Shown piece by piece: positions 185 to 17,393 of a stretch of DNA of 25,318 nucleotides. The notes beneath the pieces were generated by a model that saw nothing but the letters and a program-made list of their open reading frames with translations, made no database searches and was not told the DNA's origin. The DNA is taken from the IMG/VR virus record IMGVR_UViG_3300046011_007450, positions 1 through 25,318 of that record. One strand, 5' to 3'. Position 1 is the first letter of the stretch. Each line of letters starts with the position of its first letter. A program made the translations under genes and the position numbers. The DNA comes from a virus.

Positions 185-427
185 ATGACCATCCTTCAAC
201 TTAATCCGGTTGGGATGGTCAGTACTGATGTTGGCTACATTTCGTCGATTACAATTCGATACAATGGCGCTAACAATGTACTGACTCCAGACGACAATAA
301 CCAAATCACTCTTCCCAACGTAACTACTGGTGCAATCCAAGCTGCTGACCGAATTACTGGAGCCGCCGCAGGAGTTAATCCTGGCCCCAATGGAACTGGT
401 ATTCGAGCAGTTAGTACGGCTGCCTGA
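185..427 (+). CDS. Small unknown protein, 80 aa, probable virion-associated
   Basis: The ATG at 185 is preceded by GGAG at 176-179, a good ribosome site. The 80-residue product is rich in Gly, Ala, Asn and Thr, has no Cys and no membrane segment, and ends in a glycine/proline-rich tail (AGVNPGPNGTGIRA). The composition resembles a small beta-rich phage surface or cement protein, but I recognise no family. It lies between the truncated upstream gene and a 73-base structured gap. The TGA stop at 425-427 is only three bases before the first stem of that structure. In the -1 frame the reading stays open to about 641, but no slippery heptamer is evident and I do not call a frameshift. Confidence 0.65.
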   Translation: MTILQLNPVGMVSTDVGYISSITIRYNGANNVLTPDDNNQITLPNVTTGAIQAADRITGAAAGVNPGPNGTGIRAVSTAA

Positions 428-430
428 TTC

Positions 431-493
431 CTCCTGAGGGAACTCAGTTTTGGTGGGGTCTGAGTAATAAAACCCTGCCGCCTACCTCAGGAG
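431..493 (+). promoter_or_regulatory. Structured intergenic RNA element capturing the next gene's ribosome site
   Basis: CTCCTGAGG (431-439) pairs perfectly with CCTCAGGAG (485-493), a 9-bp stem containing the GGAG (490-493) that serves the ATG at 501. Inside it, ACTCAG (442-447) pairs with CTGAGT (460-465). GGTGGGGT (452-459) in that loop can pair with ACCCTGCC (472-479, two G-U pairs). Together these have H-type pseudoknot geometry, with a TTTT first loop and an A-rich last loop. A competing fold is CTGAG-GGAA-CTCAG (434-447), a tetraloop hairpin that breaks the outer stem. There is no T-run, so it is not a simple terminator. Control of translation of the 146-aa gene, or an mRNA processing/stability site, is inferred. 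Confidence 0.55.
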
Positions 494-500
494 TTATCCA

Positions 501-941
501 ATGTCTGAAATCGCTGAAACCCAAGTTGCTGATAAGCGACTGTATAAAAGTACGATCAAGTTCTGCAACATCATTCTTCCAGATGGCACTCGCCTTGACT
601 TCAAAGGCGGGATTTATATCACGGGAGATGAGAGTGTGATTAGCTATCTTGATCGTGCAATTGCTCGTAATGAATATTCTGGCAATATCTATATTGATCC
701 AAATGCTCGTACCGTAACAGCCGAGCAAGAGAACCCGATGCTAGCTTTGCGTAAAAAGATGTTTGCAGAGTTTATGGCTGAGCAGGCTAAGATGATTGAT
801 CCTTCCAATAACATGGGAGAATCTAAACAAGGTCCGCTCAAGGCTGCATCCACTACGGATATTGCTCCTGTGACTATTGGTGGTCCTTCTGTTGCATCTC
901 TCATGAGCGCTGCAGCAAAGCTTGGTCAGCAAACTAACTAA
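501..941 (+). CDS. Unknown phage protein, 146 aa, head/neck region
   Basis: The ATG at 501 has GGAG at 490-493, which lies inside a predicted stem. The N-terminal half (about residues 15-70) has the pattern of a small folded domain: a Lys/Phe strand, then LPDGTRLDFKGGIYITGD, then a helix (SVISYLDRAIARN). The middle (about 78-100) is a charged helix (LALRKKMFAEFMAEQAKMID) and the C-terminus is low-complexity Ser/Ala/Gly. Similar small proteins with a 'PDG..L.F.GG.Y.T' pattern occur among phage structural genes as far as I recall, but I cannot assign a function. It lies nine bases upstream of the adaptor-like gene in the same direction. Confidence 0.75.
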   Translation: MSEIAETQVADKRLYKSTIKFCNIILPDGTRLDFKGGIYITGDESVISYLDRAIARNEYSGNIYIDPNARTVTAEQENPMLALRKKMFAEFMAEQAKMIDPSNNMGESKQGPLKAASTTDIAPVTIGGPSVASLMSAAAKLGQQTN

Positions 942-1542: not shown

Positions 1543-2919
1543 ATGAGCGCATCTATCTGGAATCCTGGATCTAATATTCCATCAGGGGGAACCATTGCCA
1601 GGGCAGTAGAGCCTAAAACAGTAGCTGCTGGGCAAACTGTTGTAACATTTTCTACTTTTGAATATGTTCCAGGCACCGGCAGTTTATTCATCTTTGTTGC
1701 AGGTTTCTACTACTCAGACTATGTAGAAACCAATGGCACCTCTATTACTCTTAACACTCCTTTCACAGAGTCTGTGGAACTAGTTGCAGTTGCCGGTATT
1801 CCTTTGAATGAAGGAATCTCTGGTCTGTCGGTTTCTTATCTTGCACCCGGCGCAGATTCTGTATCTCGCACAGTGCAGAGTAAGCTGCAAGAAAGCTCTT
1901 TCATCTCTATTGTTGATAAAGGTGCCACGCCTTCTGCAGACGCTTTCTCTGCTGTGCAGTCTGCTCTAGATTCTGGGGCGGAAATTGAAATTCCTGCAGG
2001 TGCCTGGTCTGCCGTAGGCACTGCTACAGTAACCGGATCTAAAATTATCAAAGCCAGAAATGGTTCTGTACTTTCTGGAAGTGCTTTCAGTAATCTTGGC
2101 TTTTACACGGGTGGAAATGGGATTGAGCAAAATGTTCACCAAGGTGGTGGACCTGTAGATAGCGCTTCATTCTATTTTCGTCGAGAGACTAATTACGCAG
2201 GCGGCACACCTGGATATGTAAATAGCGCAGTTCGCGCAGAAACCTATGTAAGAAATCCTGCTTCCACTTCTTTTGAGTGGACTTCCTGTTTTGTGCTACA
2301 TAACTTTGCAACAGGCGGAGAGAACGTAGCAGGTTACAGGCAAGGTATTAAGTATACTGGAGCTGGTCCCACGTGGGCAGGCTGCGATGAAATTATTGAT
2401 TGGAACATCAATCCTACTAGCGGAGTTGTAGGTACTGAGCTGTCTTTTACAGCAAATGGTACAGATAATAATAGAGTTCGTGTAGCTTATGATGTGGCTT
2501 TACGTAAACGTAGTGCTGCAGGAGCATCTCCTACACTGACTTGGGGCTATCGCATTCAAACTGAGGCTGGATCCACTGTTGATAGAGGTTACGGGTTTGC
2601 CCCCGGAGCTTCTGTACTTAAAGCTTTTGATACTACAGAAGCTACTGTTCTTCAGTCTGCACTCTCTATGGCAGACGGACAAGCCATCACCTTCAATACG
2701 CTTCAAACTAAAAAGCTATTCTACGACGGCGTAGGTCTAAAGTATGAAAATGCTGCAGGGGTGCTAGGTTTTAGAGCAAATGATACTGGTGTACTGCAAG
2801 TTGGTAATATCAATACAGCGGCTACAGTGCCCGGTAACTTTATTCCAAATAGAATTATCCAAATTCAGCAAAGAGATGGTACGTCTCTTTATATTCCTGC
2901 AATGCTTGCAACCTGGTAA
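1543..2919 (+). CDS. Tailspike-like receptor-binding protein, 458 aa
   Basis: Residues 20-90 form a beta-rich virion-attachment domain like those at the N-terminus of many podoviral tailspikes. It is followed by the connector SVSYLAPGADSVSRTVQSKL (97-116) and a stretch 'D-K-G-A-x-P-S-A-D-A-F-x-A-V-Q-x-A-L' (125-142). That second pattern matches the 'VKDFGA...D.T.AIQ.AL' opening of pectate-lyase-fold tailspikes. The remaining 300 residues are Gly/Thr/Ala/Asn-rich with no helices evident, consistent with beta structure. It probably binds, and may cleave, a surface polysaccharide; catalytic residues cannot be identified by eye. The gene starts one base after the preceding stop, with only a weak ribosome site. 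Confidence 0.75.
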   Translation: MSASIWNPGSNIPSGGTIARAVEPKTVAAGQTVVTFSTFEYVPGTGSLFIFVAGFYYSDYVETNGTSITLNTPFTESVELVAVAGIPLNEGISGLSVSYLAPGADSVSRTVQSKLQESSFISIVDKGATPSADAFSAVQSALDSGAEIEIPAGAWSAVGTATVTGSKIIKARNGSVLSGSAFSNLGFYTGGNGIEQNVHQGGGPVDSASFYFRRETNYAGGTPGYVNSAVRAETYVRNPASTSFEWTSCFVLHNFATGGENVAGYRQGIKYTGAGPTWAGCDEIIDWNINPTSGVVGTELSFTANGTDNNRVRVAYDVALRKRSAAGASPTLTWGYRIQTEAGSTVDRGYGFAPGASVLKAFDTTEATVLQSALSMADGQAITFNTLQTKKLFYDGVGLKYENAAGVLGFRANDTGVLQVGNINTAATVPGNFIPNRIIQIQQRDGTSLYIPAMLATW

Positions 2920-11700: not shown

Positions 11701-13707
11701 CGTGAATCCGACACTCTGGTTTACGAATCAGTTCGCCTGAATTACGAGCCTCAGTTTGCTCTCCTGGAAGATCTAGGCCGCCAGTATTCTCTGGTGGAGA
11801 CATCTAAGTTCGCCTCCCGCGCGGACATGATTGAAGCACAATCTAAGAATCCGTACTTCAATCAGATTAAGACAGCTCTGGATATTTCCAAGATCAATGA
11901 GCACCCACTAGTCTATGGAGCTAATAAGCTTCTGGATACTGCGGTGTCTAAAGCCTGGGCATCCATTACTCGTACATTCGATGAGATTAAATCTCCAGGC
12001 GAGCTTGATAAGATCAATGCACTTACGGCGGAGTATGGTATTCAGCCAGCTTACTATGATGCTGCAATGCAGGCACTTGTAAATCATACAGCGCCGCGTG
12101 GAGCATTGACTCGCTTTGTTCGTGGAGCCAATGCAATTCTCTCGCGATTCACTCTGGGCCTGGATCCTCTTAACGCACTGAACAACGTTATTGGATCTAA
12201 TGTCCTGCGTGGAACTGAGATGGGATTGTTGACTCGTGCGATTCGAGAGGGTAATCAAGCAGTTGCTGGTGATCTGTCAGCTCTTGCTAAGATCAAGCTT
12301 CCCGGCGTAGAAGCTGAAGTTCTCTCTCCCACGAAACTTTTGGCTCAGGCAATTACGAATTTCTGGAAAGATGCTAAGCAGCCGGGGCAGCAATATGGTC
12401 CGCTCATGGCTAAGTACCGTGATATGCAGATCATTAAAGATCGTGCAGAGCAGCTTAAAATGCTGGTAGATGATTTCACCCTGAAAGGAACTGAGTCTGC
12501 CGCTGAACTTGATACTCGGATGGCACGCGGATTTGCTCGTGCTAAAGAGCTTACATCTGAGAAACTCGACACCGCAGAGAAGCTGACTGGTAATACTTTC
12601 GCAGAAGAGTTTAACCGATTCATTTCTGCGAATGTGATGGATCAGATTACATCCATTGCAGTAAAACACGGATTGATGGATGATGCGACTGCTCGTACTT
12701 ATATTAATACATTCGTGAATCGAGTGGAAGGGAACATTGTTGCTAGCCAGCGGCCCCTGATTTTCCAGGGTCCAATTGGTCAGGCAATCTCGCTCTTCCA
12801 ATCTTATCAATTCAACCTTATCCAACAGCTTCTTCGTTTTACTGCAGAGGGTAAAGCGAAAGATCTTGCTATGTTGGCTGGCCTGCAAAGTACGCTATAT
12901 GGGTACCAATCTCTCCCGGGATTCCAGGCAATCAATGTCCACATCATTGGACAGCTCGGCGGGAATGATGCGCACAAGGATTTGTACGATATCACATATG
13001 GAGCAGTTGGAAGAACTGCAGGAGATTTCATCCTCTATGGAATTCCCTCAACCCTTCTCGATACCAACATCTACTCTCGCGGCGATGTCAATCCACGACA
13101 TCTGACTATTCTTCCTACCAGCCTTCAGGAAACTCCGATCGTTGCTGGTTGGGGAAAGTTCTTTGGTTCGATCTACGAGACATCTAAAAGAATTGCAGGC
13201 GGTGGAAATGTGTGGGAGACTTTCCTGCAAGGTGTGGAACACAATGGTATCAATCGCCCGCTAGCAGGACTGGCTCAAACTGTGCAAGCCTTTGGGCCTG
13301 AAGGCATGGCTTATTCCACATCTAACAAGGGAACTATCCTCTATCAAAATGATTTGATGAGTCTTGCTACACTTACACGTCTTGCTGGCGGTAGGCCAAT
13401 GGACGAAGCAATTGTGAACGATGCTTTGTTTCGAGTGAGAACTTACGAAGCAAGGCGCCGGGAAAAATTGCTGAGTCTGGGAGAAAAAGTTAAGGGCACT
13501 CTCATTCAAGGAAATCAACCAACTGAAGAACAGATCAATCAGTTTGCTGAAGAGTATGCAAAACTCGGCGGCAAGCAGAAACAGTTCAACAAGTGGATGA
13601 TGGAAATGTATAAGAATGCAAACACGGCGCAGGCTGAGAAGCTTGCAGAATCTTTAAACAATCCGTACTCTTATAAGATTCAGCTTCTTATGGGAGGAGG
13701 CGAGTAA
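8773..13707 (+). CDS. Giant internal virion/ejection protein, 1644 aa
   Basis: This is the largest gene in the window, with AAGGA just before the ATG. Residues 1-35 are proline/acidic-rich. Two Gly/Ala-rich hydrophobic segments follow at about 116-141 (VTGFILGAIVPGLGGIRV) and 230-252 (IAIGGLLGGGVAGVFG). The remainder is mostly helical and charged. Size, position after the other two ejection genes and the membrane-like segments fit a T7 gp16-type protein that enters the cell first and helps draw in the DNA. I do not see the N-terminal lytic transglycosylase region (catalytic Glu-Ser block) expected of T7 gp16, so wall cleavage must come from another part or another protein. Some relatives carry other embedded enzymes; none is recognised here. 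Confidence 0.72.
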   Translation: MSDLFSFVRPPQSTPAPVEEEEGDSPSLPFQIADLHNISNGGVSWTNPLSWGEKLQDMGRFIAVSGLSGINSFFNTAAYVGQFFDPGIQERDTADWITELDTDLGNYYRINQESADVTGFILGAIVPGLGGIRVFNAGQIALKTAINTGKVGGTTGRALGLLVPKTDEFMDLAMKDITASTTTLNLVNANTTKAIGAGLWQNVMEAAAFETMVQATMFRSPILQQQDGWDIAQNIAIGGLLGGGVAGVFGAARLRGRLKTAIREEEVLRRPFQERVQFSVASPDANRLIQLSFDSEMAAVPITLRAADGTLIENNFAATKTLYEQKIQANALDQRTSWNNLSTDSQLGNTVANLMSPVIKDGRLVPGFAQQTYESASGAVKILRAGDQHPLELAQAKALAKGEQVENPIAIRFIKLQGDDSGGVFDSPGAYLSFADRYATPDKVRAAIRESFGFKQKFEATNRWSALKLKGAKAVEEAEARHIWAARSSGMLKEIPENAVIDRHDLPMLQRAYADGRTDIKIVSGEGPTVSIDPVTSLEELYKIIKQSKNETIEHFGRSFLTKKGKAKKGKEPGLIPKAQAQDGAIGIIADVRKNYLDGNPSGVEADDLFAMSAAGRKYQNQLSARGLSLTTPEAATPVQFLPKYAKVVYEQSKDIAALNENVLDGIAHYAAMEKIYVESAQRASAKVLGGWAEQLPALKKDKLVTATRDDPSAGLFSNDSSAYGTIGSSMSFIGSIVRAIKQDFRKNLNDTLAPAMTRMAGKTEAVFEFEGLNQKITRTGKQFYLRESEDGTQVLIDKKLVKRNKAGEEEINWEAAEDGVNAFNIRNVETAEFIRAHIAASGRRTQNFREIRAAQGKVDNKDPEVFRPIRPDLKQYAHFAFVKDPRVTGTGHMTMIHAASEKELAQLAERVPPQYKVIYKRDTEDYFKARDEYDYQRTLNENYLDSELANNGVFSNFFPKSDPQKIADDILQQHYRESDTLVYESVRLNYEPQFALLEDLGRQYSLVETSKFASRADMIEAQSKNPYFNQIKTALDISKINEHPLVYGANKLLDTAVSKAWASITRTFDEIKSPGELDKINALTAEYGIQPAYYDAAMQALVNHTAPRGALTRFVRGANAILSRFTLGLDPLNALNNVIGSNVLRGTEMGLLTRAIREGNQAVAGDLSALAKIKLPGVEAEVLSPTKLLAQAITNFWKDAKQPGQQYGPLMAKYRDMQIIKDRAEQLKMLVDDFTLKGTESAAELDTRMARGFARAKELTSEKLDTAEKLTGNTFAEEFNRFISANVMDQITSIAVKHGLMDDATARTYINTFVNRVEGNIVASQRPLIFQGPIGQAISLFQSYQFNLIQQLLRFTAEGKAKDLAMLAGLQSTLYGYQSLPGFQAINVHIIGQLGGNDAHKDLYDITYGAVGRTAGDFILYGIPSTLLDTNIYSRGDVNPRHLTILPTSLQETPIVAGWGKFFGSIYETSKRIAGGGNVWETFLQGVEHNGINRPLAGLAQTVQAFGPEGMAYSTSNKGTILYQNDLMSLATLTRLAGGRPMDEAIVNDALFRVRTYEARRREKLLSLGEKVKGTLIQGNQPTEEQINQFAEEYAKLGGKQKQFNKWMMEMYKNANTAQAEKLAESLNNPYSYKIQLLMGGGE

Positions 13708-14960
13708 TGCCCTCTACCTCAGTAGTAGAAACAAATACAGGGCGAGTCATTAATGTAGACCAGGTTCATCCTAACCTGCCACTACTGTATGATGAAGTCC
13801 TAGGTACTTGGCATCCTCAGCTTGGCGTTGAGGGTATTGCTAAGTCTGCTAACTATGTTTGGGATACTGGATCACTTAGCTGGGTTGTAATGACTCAGCC
13901 TAGCGGAGGAGGTGGAGGAGGGGGTGGAGGAGCTGTAACTGTAGCTAATGGAGCTGACGTAGCTCTTGGATCTACTACAGATACTGCTGTAACTTCTGAT
14001 GCCGCTGGAACTGTTTCAGGAAAACTTCGTGGTCTAGTGGCTATCTTAGCTGATGTTTGGGATAATGCAAATAATCTTCTCCGTATTGGTGGTACAGTAT
14101 CTGTAGATAACTTTCCGGCGAGCCAAACAGTCAATGGTACCGTAGCAATCTCTAATCTGGCTGGATCACCTATTGCAGGAAAACAAGTGTTTGTCTACAA
14201 AGTAGGTACAGCTCCTGAAGCTGCTGGCGTATTTTATTGCTGGGCTAAAGATACAGGAAGTCCTGGAGCTTGGGCACCTGGAACTCCTGGATTAAATGGG
14301 CGAGCCACTGATGGAACTCTTGCAGCGGATGCTGGGTGTTTGCGCATTCCGAATCCTACGCTCGGAGGAAACTATCTTTCTCAGTGCTCTCTTGGAACTA
14401 CAGTAGCTTGCTTTCTTAACATCTTCGATTTTGTCTGGGTTAATAGTGGTCTGGTAGTAACTACTACAACTGCCCAAGCTATTACCAGTGTAGCTTTTCC
14501 TGCACGGGATGCAGCAGGCACCGCGAATGGACAAGGTTTTGGTATTGGTATCCTTGTTACCACAGCCACAACCAATGCAGCCGCAATTGCTACAATCACA
14601 ATTAACTACACGAACCAAGCAGGAACTCCTGGACGTACCGCCACCATTTCCTCTTTCCCTGCAACTGCTGTAATTGGTACTGTTGTTCTTGCTCAGCTTC
14701 AGGCAGGAGATACTGGAGTTCGTAGTATTCAAGGTGTGACACTTGGTACTAGTTTAGTGGCGGGAGCAATTTCACTTTTTGTGTATAGTGGAATTATCTC
14801 CCAAAGTTCTGCCACTCCTAATGCTGGCGGACCTGCTCTTACTAATGTGCTTGATCCTGGACCAAGACTTTACAACGGAGTTTGTTTGCTTCCTGTAGGA
14901 TTGATGTCAGGAACTGTAGCAACTACTCTTGTTGGAACAATCATTGCAACGGAGCGATAA
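13707..14960 (+). CDS. Virion/tail appendage protein with a nine-glycine linker, 417 aa
   Basis: Residues 1-65 form a small N-terminal domain with several Trp and Tyr (YVWDTGSLSWVVMTQPS). It is joined by Gly67-Gly75 (coded at 13905-13931 by mixed GGA/GGT/GGG codons) to a beta-rich body. The body opens AVTVANGADVALGSTTDTAV and includes VSGKLRGLVAILADVWD, a pattern common in phage and prophage virion proteins. The last 240 residues are Gly/Thr/Ala-rich strands. The start overlaps the ejection gene stop by one base (TAATG), with GGAGGAGG just upstream. It opens the second adhesin block. Its exact location on the virion is not shown by the sequence. Confidence 0.65.
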   Translation: MPSTSVVETNTGRVINVDQVHPNLPLLYDEVLGTWHPQLGVEGIAKSANYVWDTGSLSWVVMTQPSGGGGGGGGGAVTVANGADVALGSTTDTAVTSDAAGTVSGKLRGLVAILADVWDNANNLLRIGGTVSVDNFPASQTVNGTVAISNLAGSPIAGKQVFVYKVGTAPEAAGVFYCWAKDTGSPGAWAPGTPGLNGRATDGTLAADAGCLRIPNPTLGGNYLSQCSLGTTVACFLNIFDFVWVNSGLVVTTTTAQAITSVAFPARDAAGTANGQGFGIGILVTTATTNAAAIATITINYTNQAGTPGRTATISSFPATAVIGTVVLAQLQAGDTGVRSIQGVTLGTSLVAGAISLFVYSGIISQSSATPNAGGPALTNVLDPGPRLYNGVCLLPVGLMSGTVATTLVGTIIATER

Positions 14961-17351: not shown

Positions 17352-17393
17352 AAAAAAGCCCCCAAAGGATTTCTCCTGAGGGGGTTTTCTTTT
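17352..17393. terminator. Bidirectional intrinsic terminator between converging operons
   Basis: CCCCC (17359-17363) pairs with GGGGG (17380-17384), and inside it AGGA (17366-17369) pairs with TCCT (17374-17377) around TTTC-like bases. On the + strand the stem is followed by TTTTCTTTT. On the - strand it is followed by a run of six T (the A-run at 17352-17357). It lies 18 bases after the last + gene and 9 bases after the last - gene, exactly where both operons end. Confidence 0.88.

What the first reader, a model, noticed from the sequence alone, without database searches (positions are those of the whole stretch)
428..500. Pseudoknot-containing RNA element with competing folds over a ribosome binding site
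In a 73-base gap, CTGAG occurs at 434 and 460 and its complement CTCAG at 443 and 486, so two pairing sets exclude each other. In one, CTCCTGAGG (431-439) captures the Shine-Dalgarno stretch CCTCAGGAG (485-493) while 442-447 pairs with 460-465. In the other, 434-438 pairs with 443-447 across a GGAA tetraloop. In addition 452-459 can pair with 472-479 to give an H-type pseudoknot with a T-rich first loop and A-rich last loop. This is more structure than chance would usually give, and it suggests a translational switch, a ligand- or temperature-sensing leader, or an RNase-resistant element.
Basis: partly seen in the sequence, partly recalled or inferred. Interest (0 to 1): 0.68.

Follow-up and report, generated by a model that had tools for sequence, protein, structure and literature searches.

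The report
Conserved phage RNA pseudoknot after capsid gene
Between the coat-protein region and the next gene of an uncultured virus of bacteria lies a small folded RNA (a pseudoknot closed by a stem that hides the next gene's ribosome-binding site); its shape, though not its sequence, has been kept across dozens of related viruses and it matches no known RNA family.

Summary
The structure is real and evolutionarily conserved: a 9-bp stem P1 (431-439/485-493, holding the Shine-Dalgarno) closes an H-type pseudoknot (S1 442-447/460-465, S2 452-459/472-479; U-rich loop 1, A-rich loop 3). Across 31 distinct homologues, 13 of 17 pairs change on both sides (covariation 0.652, shuffled 0.172; slid controls at most 0.112). 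G.U outnumbers A.C 24:1, so the RNA is read from the + strand. The 65-nt core is identical in a relative whose fourfold-degenerate sites are only 61-65% identical. The 'switch' part fails: the competing pairings occur at shuffled level. The element sits at one locus, just after the stop of an SU10-type major capsid gene (or a small ORF inserted behind it) and before one small gene, usually one copy per genome. P1 covers the Shine-Dalgarno in 27 of 39 P1-bearing slots. In relatives the same slot holds an intrinsic terminator or a plain hairpin. No Rfam match and no paper found. Most likely an intercistronic expression barrier between capsid and downstream head/tail genes, with an SD-hiding lid that a terminating ribosome can open. 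Structure near certain; mechanism inferred.

The parts
185..427 (+). 80-aa ORF between the major capsid gene and the element; its stop codon is 425-427, three bases before P1
   Evidence: same ORF in L150-L154, absent in L155 and L156 where the element follows the capsid gene directly
431..439 (+). P1, 5' arm CTCCTGAGG
   Evidence: TCCTCCTGAGGGAA identical in loci found by protein similarity alone, L106-L117; compensatory change to CCTAGG/CCTAGG in L187, L195, L197 and, with one G-C pair now G.U, in L186, L189, L214
442..447 (+). S1 (pseudoknot stem 1), 5' strand ACTCAG
   Evidence: all five S1 pairs counted have changes on both sides
448..451 (+). loop 1, U-rich (TTTT)
   Evidence: loop 1 is 124 of 162 T over 35 elements
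452..459 (+). S2 (pseudoknot stem 2), 5' strand GGTGGGGT
   Evidence: all six S2 pairs counted have changes on both sides
460..465 (+). S1, 3' strand CTGAGT
466..471 (+). loop 3, A-rich (AATAAA)
   Evidence: loop 3 is 152 of 204 A over 35 elements
472..479 (+). S2, 3' strand ACCCTGCC
485..493 (+). P1, 3' arm CCTCAGGAG; contains the Shine-Dalgarno AGGAG (489-493), 7 nt before the start codon at 501
501..941 (+). gene directly downstream (146 aa, no named family); the element precedes homologues of it

Best explanation
It is a cis-acting intercistronic RNA element of phages with an SU10-type major capsid protein: an H-type pseudoknot closed by stem P1, placed right behind the stop codon of the capsid cistron (or of a small ORF inserted after it) and in front of one small gene of the head-to-tail block. 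Proposed mechanism: the element keeps expression of the downstream gene(s) separate from, and lower than, that of the abundantly needed capsid protein. In this window P1 hides the Shine-Dalgarno; the pseudoknot holds P1 closed and forms a compact barrier; a ribosome that terminates at 425-427 would cover part of the 5' arm 431-439 and let the downstream gene be translated only at a limited, coupled rate. In lineages where P1 does not cover the Shine-Dalgarno, the pseudoknot is presumed to act as a barrier alone. Shown here: structure, conservation, strand, locus, SD overlap, alternation of the slot with terminators. Inferred: the effect on expression and the opening by terminating ribosomes.
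For: Covariation in all three stems, 13 of 17 pairs changed on both sides, 95.8% of cells paired, slid controls 33-48%. G.U 24 against A.C 1, p about 1.5e-6, so the transcript is the gene-sense strand. 65 of 65 bases identical to L103 where fourfold sites are 61-65% identical; 63 of 65 to L106, whose downstream protein is only 54.5% identical. Shine-Dalgarno inside the P1 3' arm in 27 of 39, with the arm ending 5-13 nt before the start, even where the arm changes register (L155, L161) or sequence (L179, L195, L197, L214). P1 begins 2-7 nt after the stop in most, within reach of a terminating ribosome. The same slot holds intrinsic terminators in cultured relatives (P5, EBPR podovirus 3, Tiera, PaP2, CRP-810, VS-ABTNL-3) and in some close relatives (L184, L191, L207, L215, L219, L224, L225); on the capsid tree the labels swap repeatedly (at least 5 changes forced for terminators). 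That points to a shared task of separating capsid from downstream expression.
Against: In 12 of 39 P1-bearing elements the Shine-Dalgarno lies outside P1, and several relatives keep a pseudoknot without P1 (L198, L202, L209, L228), so SD masking is not the conserved core. The short stop-to-P1 distance is similar whether or not the SD is masked, so it does not speak specifically for coupling. Some slots hold a plain hairpin without U-tract (L211, whose MCP is identical to that of L209). No expression data exist for these phages.
Confidence: 0.5

Rival explanations
1. The pseudoknot is mainly a 3' barrier that protects or defines the 3' end of the capsid mRNA (block to 3'-5' exonucleases, or a transcription pause/processing site); P1 over the Shine-Dalgarno is a secondary addition.
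For: Common to pseudoknot, bare pseudoknot, plain hairpin and terminator slots is a stable structure right behind the capsid-side stop codon; the pseudoknot persists without P1 or SD masking; a few pseudoknots are followed directly by a U-run (L173, L174, L195, L198, L212).
Against: The element stays next to the downstream gene when ORFs are inserted behind the capsid gene; most elements mask the SD at normal spacing; the window's element has no U-tract, so it is not an intrinsic terminator.
Confidence: 0.25
2. Operator for a regulatory protein (the downstream 146-aa protein, the capsid protein, or a host RNA-binding protein), as T4 gp32 binds a pseudoknot upstream of its own ribosome-binding site.
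For: Pseudoknot before an RBS is the T4 gene 32 arrangement (PMC535899); the 14-mer TCCTCCTGAGGGAA is identical in all loci that were found by protein similarity alone and carry the element, and such sequence constraint could be a binding site.
Against: Stem sequences S1 and S2 vary freely; the invariant part is P1 and its junction; P1 itself changes in other lineages. No known domain was recognised in the downstream protein.
Confidence: 0.15
3. Ligand- or temperature-sensing switch (riboswitch or thermometer) with two exclusive folds.
For: Compact pseudoknot with U-rich loop 1 and A-rich loop 3, an architecture shared with small riboswitches (general knowledge).
Against: The competing pairings are not conserved; the conserved folds do not exclude each other; the element occurs at one locus before one structural-block gene, usually once per genome; no Rfam riboswitch match even at E 10.
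Confidence: 0.05
4. Stimulator of frameshifting or stop-codon readthrough that extends the capsid-side protein.
For: A pseudoknot begins about 15 nt after a stop codon.
Against: The distance from stop to element varies in frame and the frames beyond are not kept open; the upstream gene differs between lineages (capsid or unrelated small ORFs).
Confidence: 0.03
5. Chance complementarity.
For: The single-sequence folding z-score is only about -2.3.
Against: Covariation and conservation.
Confidence: 0.01

Closest known systems
T4 / RB69 gene 32 translational operator (pseudoknot 5' of the RBS; PMC535899)
   Same: Phage mRNA pseudoknot in an intercistronic region upstream of a ribosome-binding site
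   Different: There the pseudoknot nucleates gp32 binding and the RBS region is largely unstructured; here an outer stem P1 masks the Shine-Dalgarno itself, the gene is in the head-tail block, and the sequence and locus are unrelated
Translational coupling through SD-masking structures (mechanism class, general knowledge; coupling by termination-reinitiation studied in PMC6728339)
   Same: SD paired with sequence just downstream of the preceding stop codon, so that a terminating ribosome could free it
   Different: An H-type pseudoknot is nested inside the masking stem, and the element persists in lineages that do not mask the SD
Intrinsic terminator behind the major capsid gene (T7 T-phi, from general knowledge; here seen in PaP2, P5, EBPR podovirus 3, Tiera)
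   Same: Same slot behind the capsid gene, same presumed need to express capsid protein more than downstream genes
   Different: No U-tract in the window's element; pseudoknot instead of a simple hairpin
Small H-type pseudoknot riboswitches (preQ1, SAM-II; general knowledge)
   Same: H-type pseudoknot; U-rich loop 1 and A-rich loop 3 recalled for some of them
   Different: No Rfam match, one locus only, no conserved alternative fold
L17 downstream element (PMC2864571) and Mu-gpT-DE (recalled from memory)
   Same: Structured RNA located downstream of a gene for an abundant protein
   Different: No Rfam match to either; their structures were not compared here

Membership tests
Any Rfam 15 family | Covariance-model score at or above the gathering threshold | tested here: not met
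   No hit in the window, none relevant at E up to 10 in 380-560, none in 20 related loci
H-type pseudoknot | Two crossing stems supported by covariation | tested here: met
   S1 and S2: all 11 counted pairs have changes on both sides
SD-sequestering regulatory RNA | Shine-Dalgarno of the downstream gene lies within a conserved stem | tested here: met
   Met in the window and in 27 of 39 P1-bearing elements; not in the other 12
SD-sequestering regulatory RNA | Stem opening changes translation of the downstream gene | not testable with these tools
   Needs a reporter assay
Riboswitch / RNA thermometer | Conserved, mutually exclusive alternative structures | tested here: not met
   Alternative pairings occur at shuffled level
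Riboswitch / RNA thermometer | Ligand binding or temperature response | not testable with these tools
   Needs probing
Intrinsic terminator | GC-rich hairpin followed directly by a U-tract | tested here: not met
   The sequence after S2 is GCCTACCTCAGG and after P1 TTATCC. The scan's only hit here, 434-447 followed by TTTT, is the non-conserved competing hairpin
Frameshift or readthrough stimulator | Conserved frame and open extension beyond the stop | tested here: not met
   Stop-to-element distance varies in frame and the extensions hit stops
T4 gene 32-type operator | Specific binding by the encoded protein | not testable with these tools
   Needs binding assays

The most novel reading that the evidence does not exclude
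A previously undescribed, fast-evolving class of phage intercistronic pseudoknot that repeatedly trades places with intrinsic terminators behind the major capsid gene, so that a purely post-transcriptional barrier does the job that other phages give to a terminator.
Probability: 0.4. Interest if true: 0.7.

Novelty: new variant of a known kind. Interest (0 to 1): 0.55.

Why it matters
It adds a structured RNA family with very strong covariation that Rfam lacks, at a place where phages must solve a general problem: hundreds of capsid copies against few head-completion and tail proteins from one operon. The alternation with terminators makes a testable case of two mechanisms for one need, and the contrast between SD-masked and unmasked elements separates translational from mRNA-end effects in a natural experiment.

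Tried and rejected
The two competing pairings (434-438/443-447 and 460-464/486-490) were tested on 31 sequences and rejected as conserved features. Frameshift/readthrough was rejected because spacing and frame vary. Rfam gave nothing. BLAST of the region and tblastn of the downstream protein in the phage collection gave nothing, so cultured relatives were reached through the adaptor and the capsid protein. The pattern hits in bacterial genome contigs were read by eye, show no element, and are taken as chance; likewise L130 and L133. My automatic pseudoknot finder also reports false pseudoknots on plain terminators (L210, L215, L219, L224); these were not counted. It misses elements with internal mismatches in S2 (L164, L171, L178), which were read by hand. 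One scan failed for lack of a conserved stretch; one pair count failed on string length; one script failed on a name clash (redone; 78 stopped before its last two optional comparisons). Two literature calls failed on a character.

Full report
What was claimed. All the stated matches are present at the stated coordinates.

Setting. The window is a 25.3-kb phage fragment held as a single viral record with DNA polymerase and primase genes on one arm. The gap lies between an 80-aa ORF (185-427) and a 146-aa gene (501-941). The next gene (951-1541) is an adaptor-like protein with a weak, sub-threshold match to PF24175, SU10_adaptor. In relatives the gene before this region is a major capsid protein of family PF17236, SU10_MCP; the window begins inside its last codons.

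Structure in the window. The nested part folds at -27.1 kcal/mol (z -2.3, 5 of 200 shuffles as good). It consists of P1 431-439/485-493, which contains the Shine-Dalgarno AGGAG at 489-493, and S2 452-459/472-479. S1, 442-447/460-465, pairs the loop of S2 with the strand between P1 and S2 and makes an H-type pseudoknot with loop 1 TTTT and loop 3 AATAAA. The pseudoknot score exceeds 100 of 100 dinucleotide shuffles in the window and in 17 of the 19 relatives tested (the two exceptions are L131 and L132).

Relatives. Protein searches gave near-identical relatives first. A pattern scan that fixed only the P1 arms then showed divergent elements before homologues of the same gene, with new sequences in S1 and S2 that still pair. 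Because that search fixed P1, two searches that ignore the element were added: by the downstream protein and by the capsid protein. In the protein-only set the 5' arm TCCTCCTGAGGGAA is identical in every locus that carries the element (L106-L117); L118 and, from an earlier protein search, L019 do not carry it. In the capsid-anchored set P1 is seen to change in a compensatory way, CTGAGG/CCTCAG to CCTAGG/CCTAGG (L187, L195, L197; L186, L189 and L214 with a G.U in place of one G-C pair).

Covariation. Six P1 pairs, five S1 pairs and six S2 pairs from 31 distinct elements were put side by side without gaps and counted: 95.8% of cells pair, 13 of 17 pairs have changes on both sides, covariation score 0.652 against 0.172 in shuffles and at most 0.112 when the partners are slid. 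These stem segments were picked for each sequence by pairing, which favours pairing; the shuffle tests on whole slots address that bias. G.U pairs number 24 and A.C 1, which puts the functional RNA on the gene strand.

Constraint. Against L103 the core 429-493 is 65/65 identical while fourfold-degenerate sites of the two following genes are 65% and 61% identical; against L106 it is 63/65 although the downstream proteins are 54.5% identical.

The competing folds. They are accidents of the window's S1 sequence. P1 and the pseudoknot do not exclude each other, so there is no evidence for a switch.

Locus and copy number. In the element-based scan of viral contigs all hits except two chance matches inside another reading frame (L130, L133) sit in this one slot. 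Eleven records of 27-45 kb hold one such site each, and two of them a second match on the opposite strand. Different small ORFs (61-114 aa) are inserted between capsid gene and element in different lineages, and the element stays next to the downstream gene.

Shine-Dalgarno. Of 39 P1-bearing slots (35 with automatically called P1 plus four read by hand), the Shine-Dalgarno overlaps the P1 3' arm in 27, the arm ending 5-13 nt before the start codon; in 12 the Shine-Dalgarno lies farther downstream or is not recognisable, and the element is kept. SD masking is therefore frequent but not the conserved core. Several relatives have a pseudoknot without P1 (L198, L202, L209, L228).

What else occupies the slot. 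Cultured phages with the same capsid family have a hairpin with a U-tract there: Aeromonas phage P5, EBPR podovirus 3, Polaromonas phage Tiera, Pseudomonas phage PaP2, Roseobacter CRP-810 and Vibrio VS-ABTNL-3. Some close relatives do too (L184, L191, L207, L215, L219, L224, L225). On the capsid tree these states interchange, with at least five changes forced by well-supported branches for terminators. L209 and L211 have identical capsid proteins but a pseudoknot in one and a plain hairpin in the other. Labels were assigned by me, partly by eye.

Interpretation. The shared feature of the slot is a stable RNA structure directly behind the capsid-side stop codon. The simplest reading is that it separates expression of the abundant capsid protein from that of genes needed in few copies. 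In the window's lineage this is done, by inference, with an SD-hiding stem clamped by a pseudoknot, within reach of a ribosome terminating at 425-427. A 3'-end barrier for the capsid mRNA is the main rival; a protein operator of the T4 gene 32 kind (PMC535899) is the next. No expression data exist, so mechanism confidence is about one half while structure confidence is near certainty.

Novelty. No Rfam family matches the window or 20 related loci, and the paper searches found no description of it; most subscription papers are not in that library, and only part of the literature was searched.

Noticed in passing
window 185-427; L157-L196: A family of 64-80-aa ORFs (MAVIQVNxPGMxSTDPGYISSIT...) sits between the capsid gene and the element in many lineages and is absent in others; unrelated ORFs (97, 61, 114 aa) take the same place elsewhere. 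The window's copy has no Pfam or PHROG match.
   Followed up: partly
L209 and L211, slot after the capsid gene: Two contigs with identical capsid proteins carry quite different RNA structures in the slot (a pseudoknot in one, a plain hairpin in the other), suggesting fast exchange.
   Followed up: partly
L173, L174, L195, L198, L212: The pseudoknot's S2 stem is followed directly or nearly so by a U-run, i.e. pseudoknot and terminator features are combined.
   Followed up: no
L116 / L162, between S2 and the P1 3' arm: An extra hairpin (CCGG-TTTTT-CCGG) is inserted inside P1 without disturbing the pseudoknot.
   Followed up: no
window 17359-17384: A hairpin with U-tracts on both strands between two convergent gene blocks, probably a bidirectional terminator; it contains CTCCTGAGGGGG by chance resemblance.
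   Followed up: partly
window 13707-14960: The ORF encodes a run of nine glycines (PSGGGGGGGGGAVTV); such a G-rich tract could vary in length.
   Followed up: no
G005 13769-13779 (-) and G006 2208-2218 (-), the records of L113 and L112: A second CCTCCTGAGGG about 1.1 kb downstream of the element on the opposite strand.
   Followed up: no
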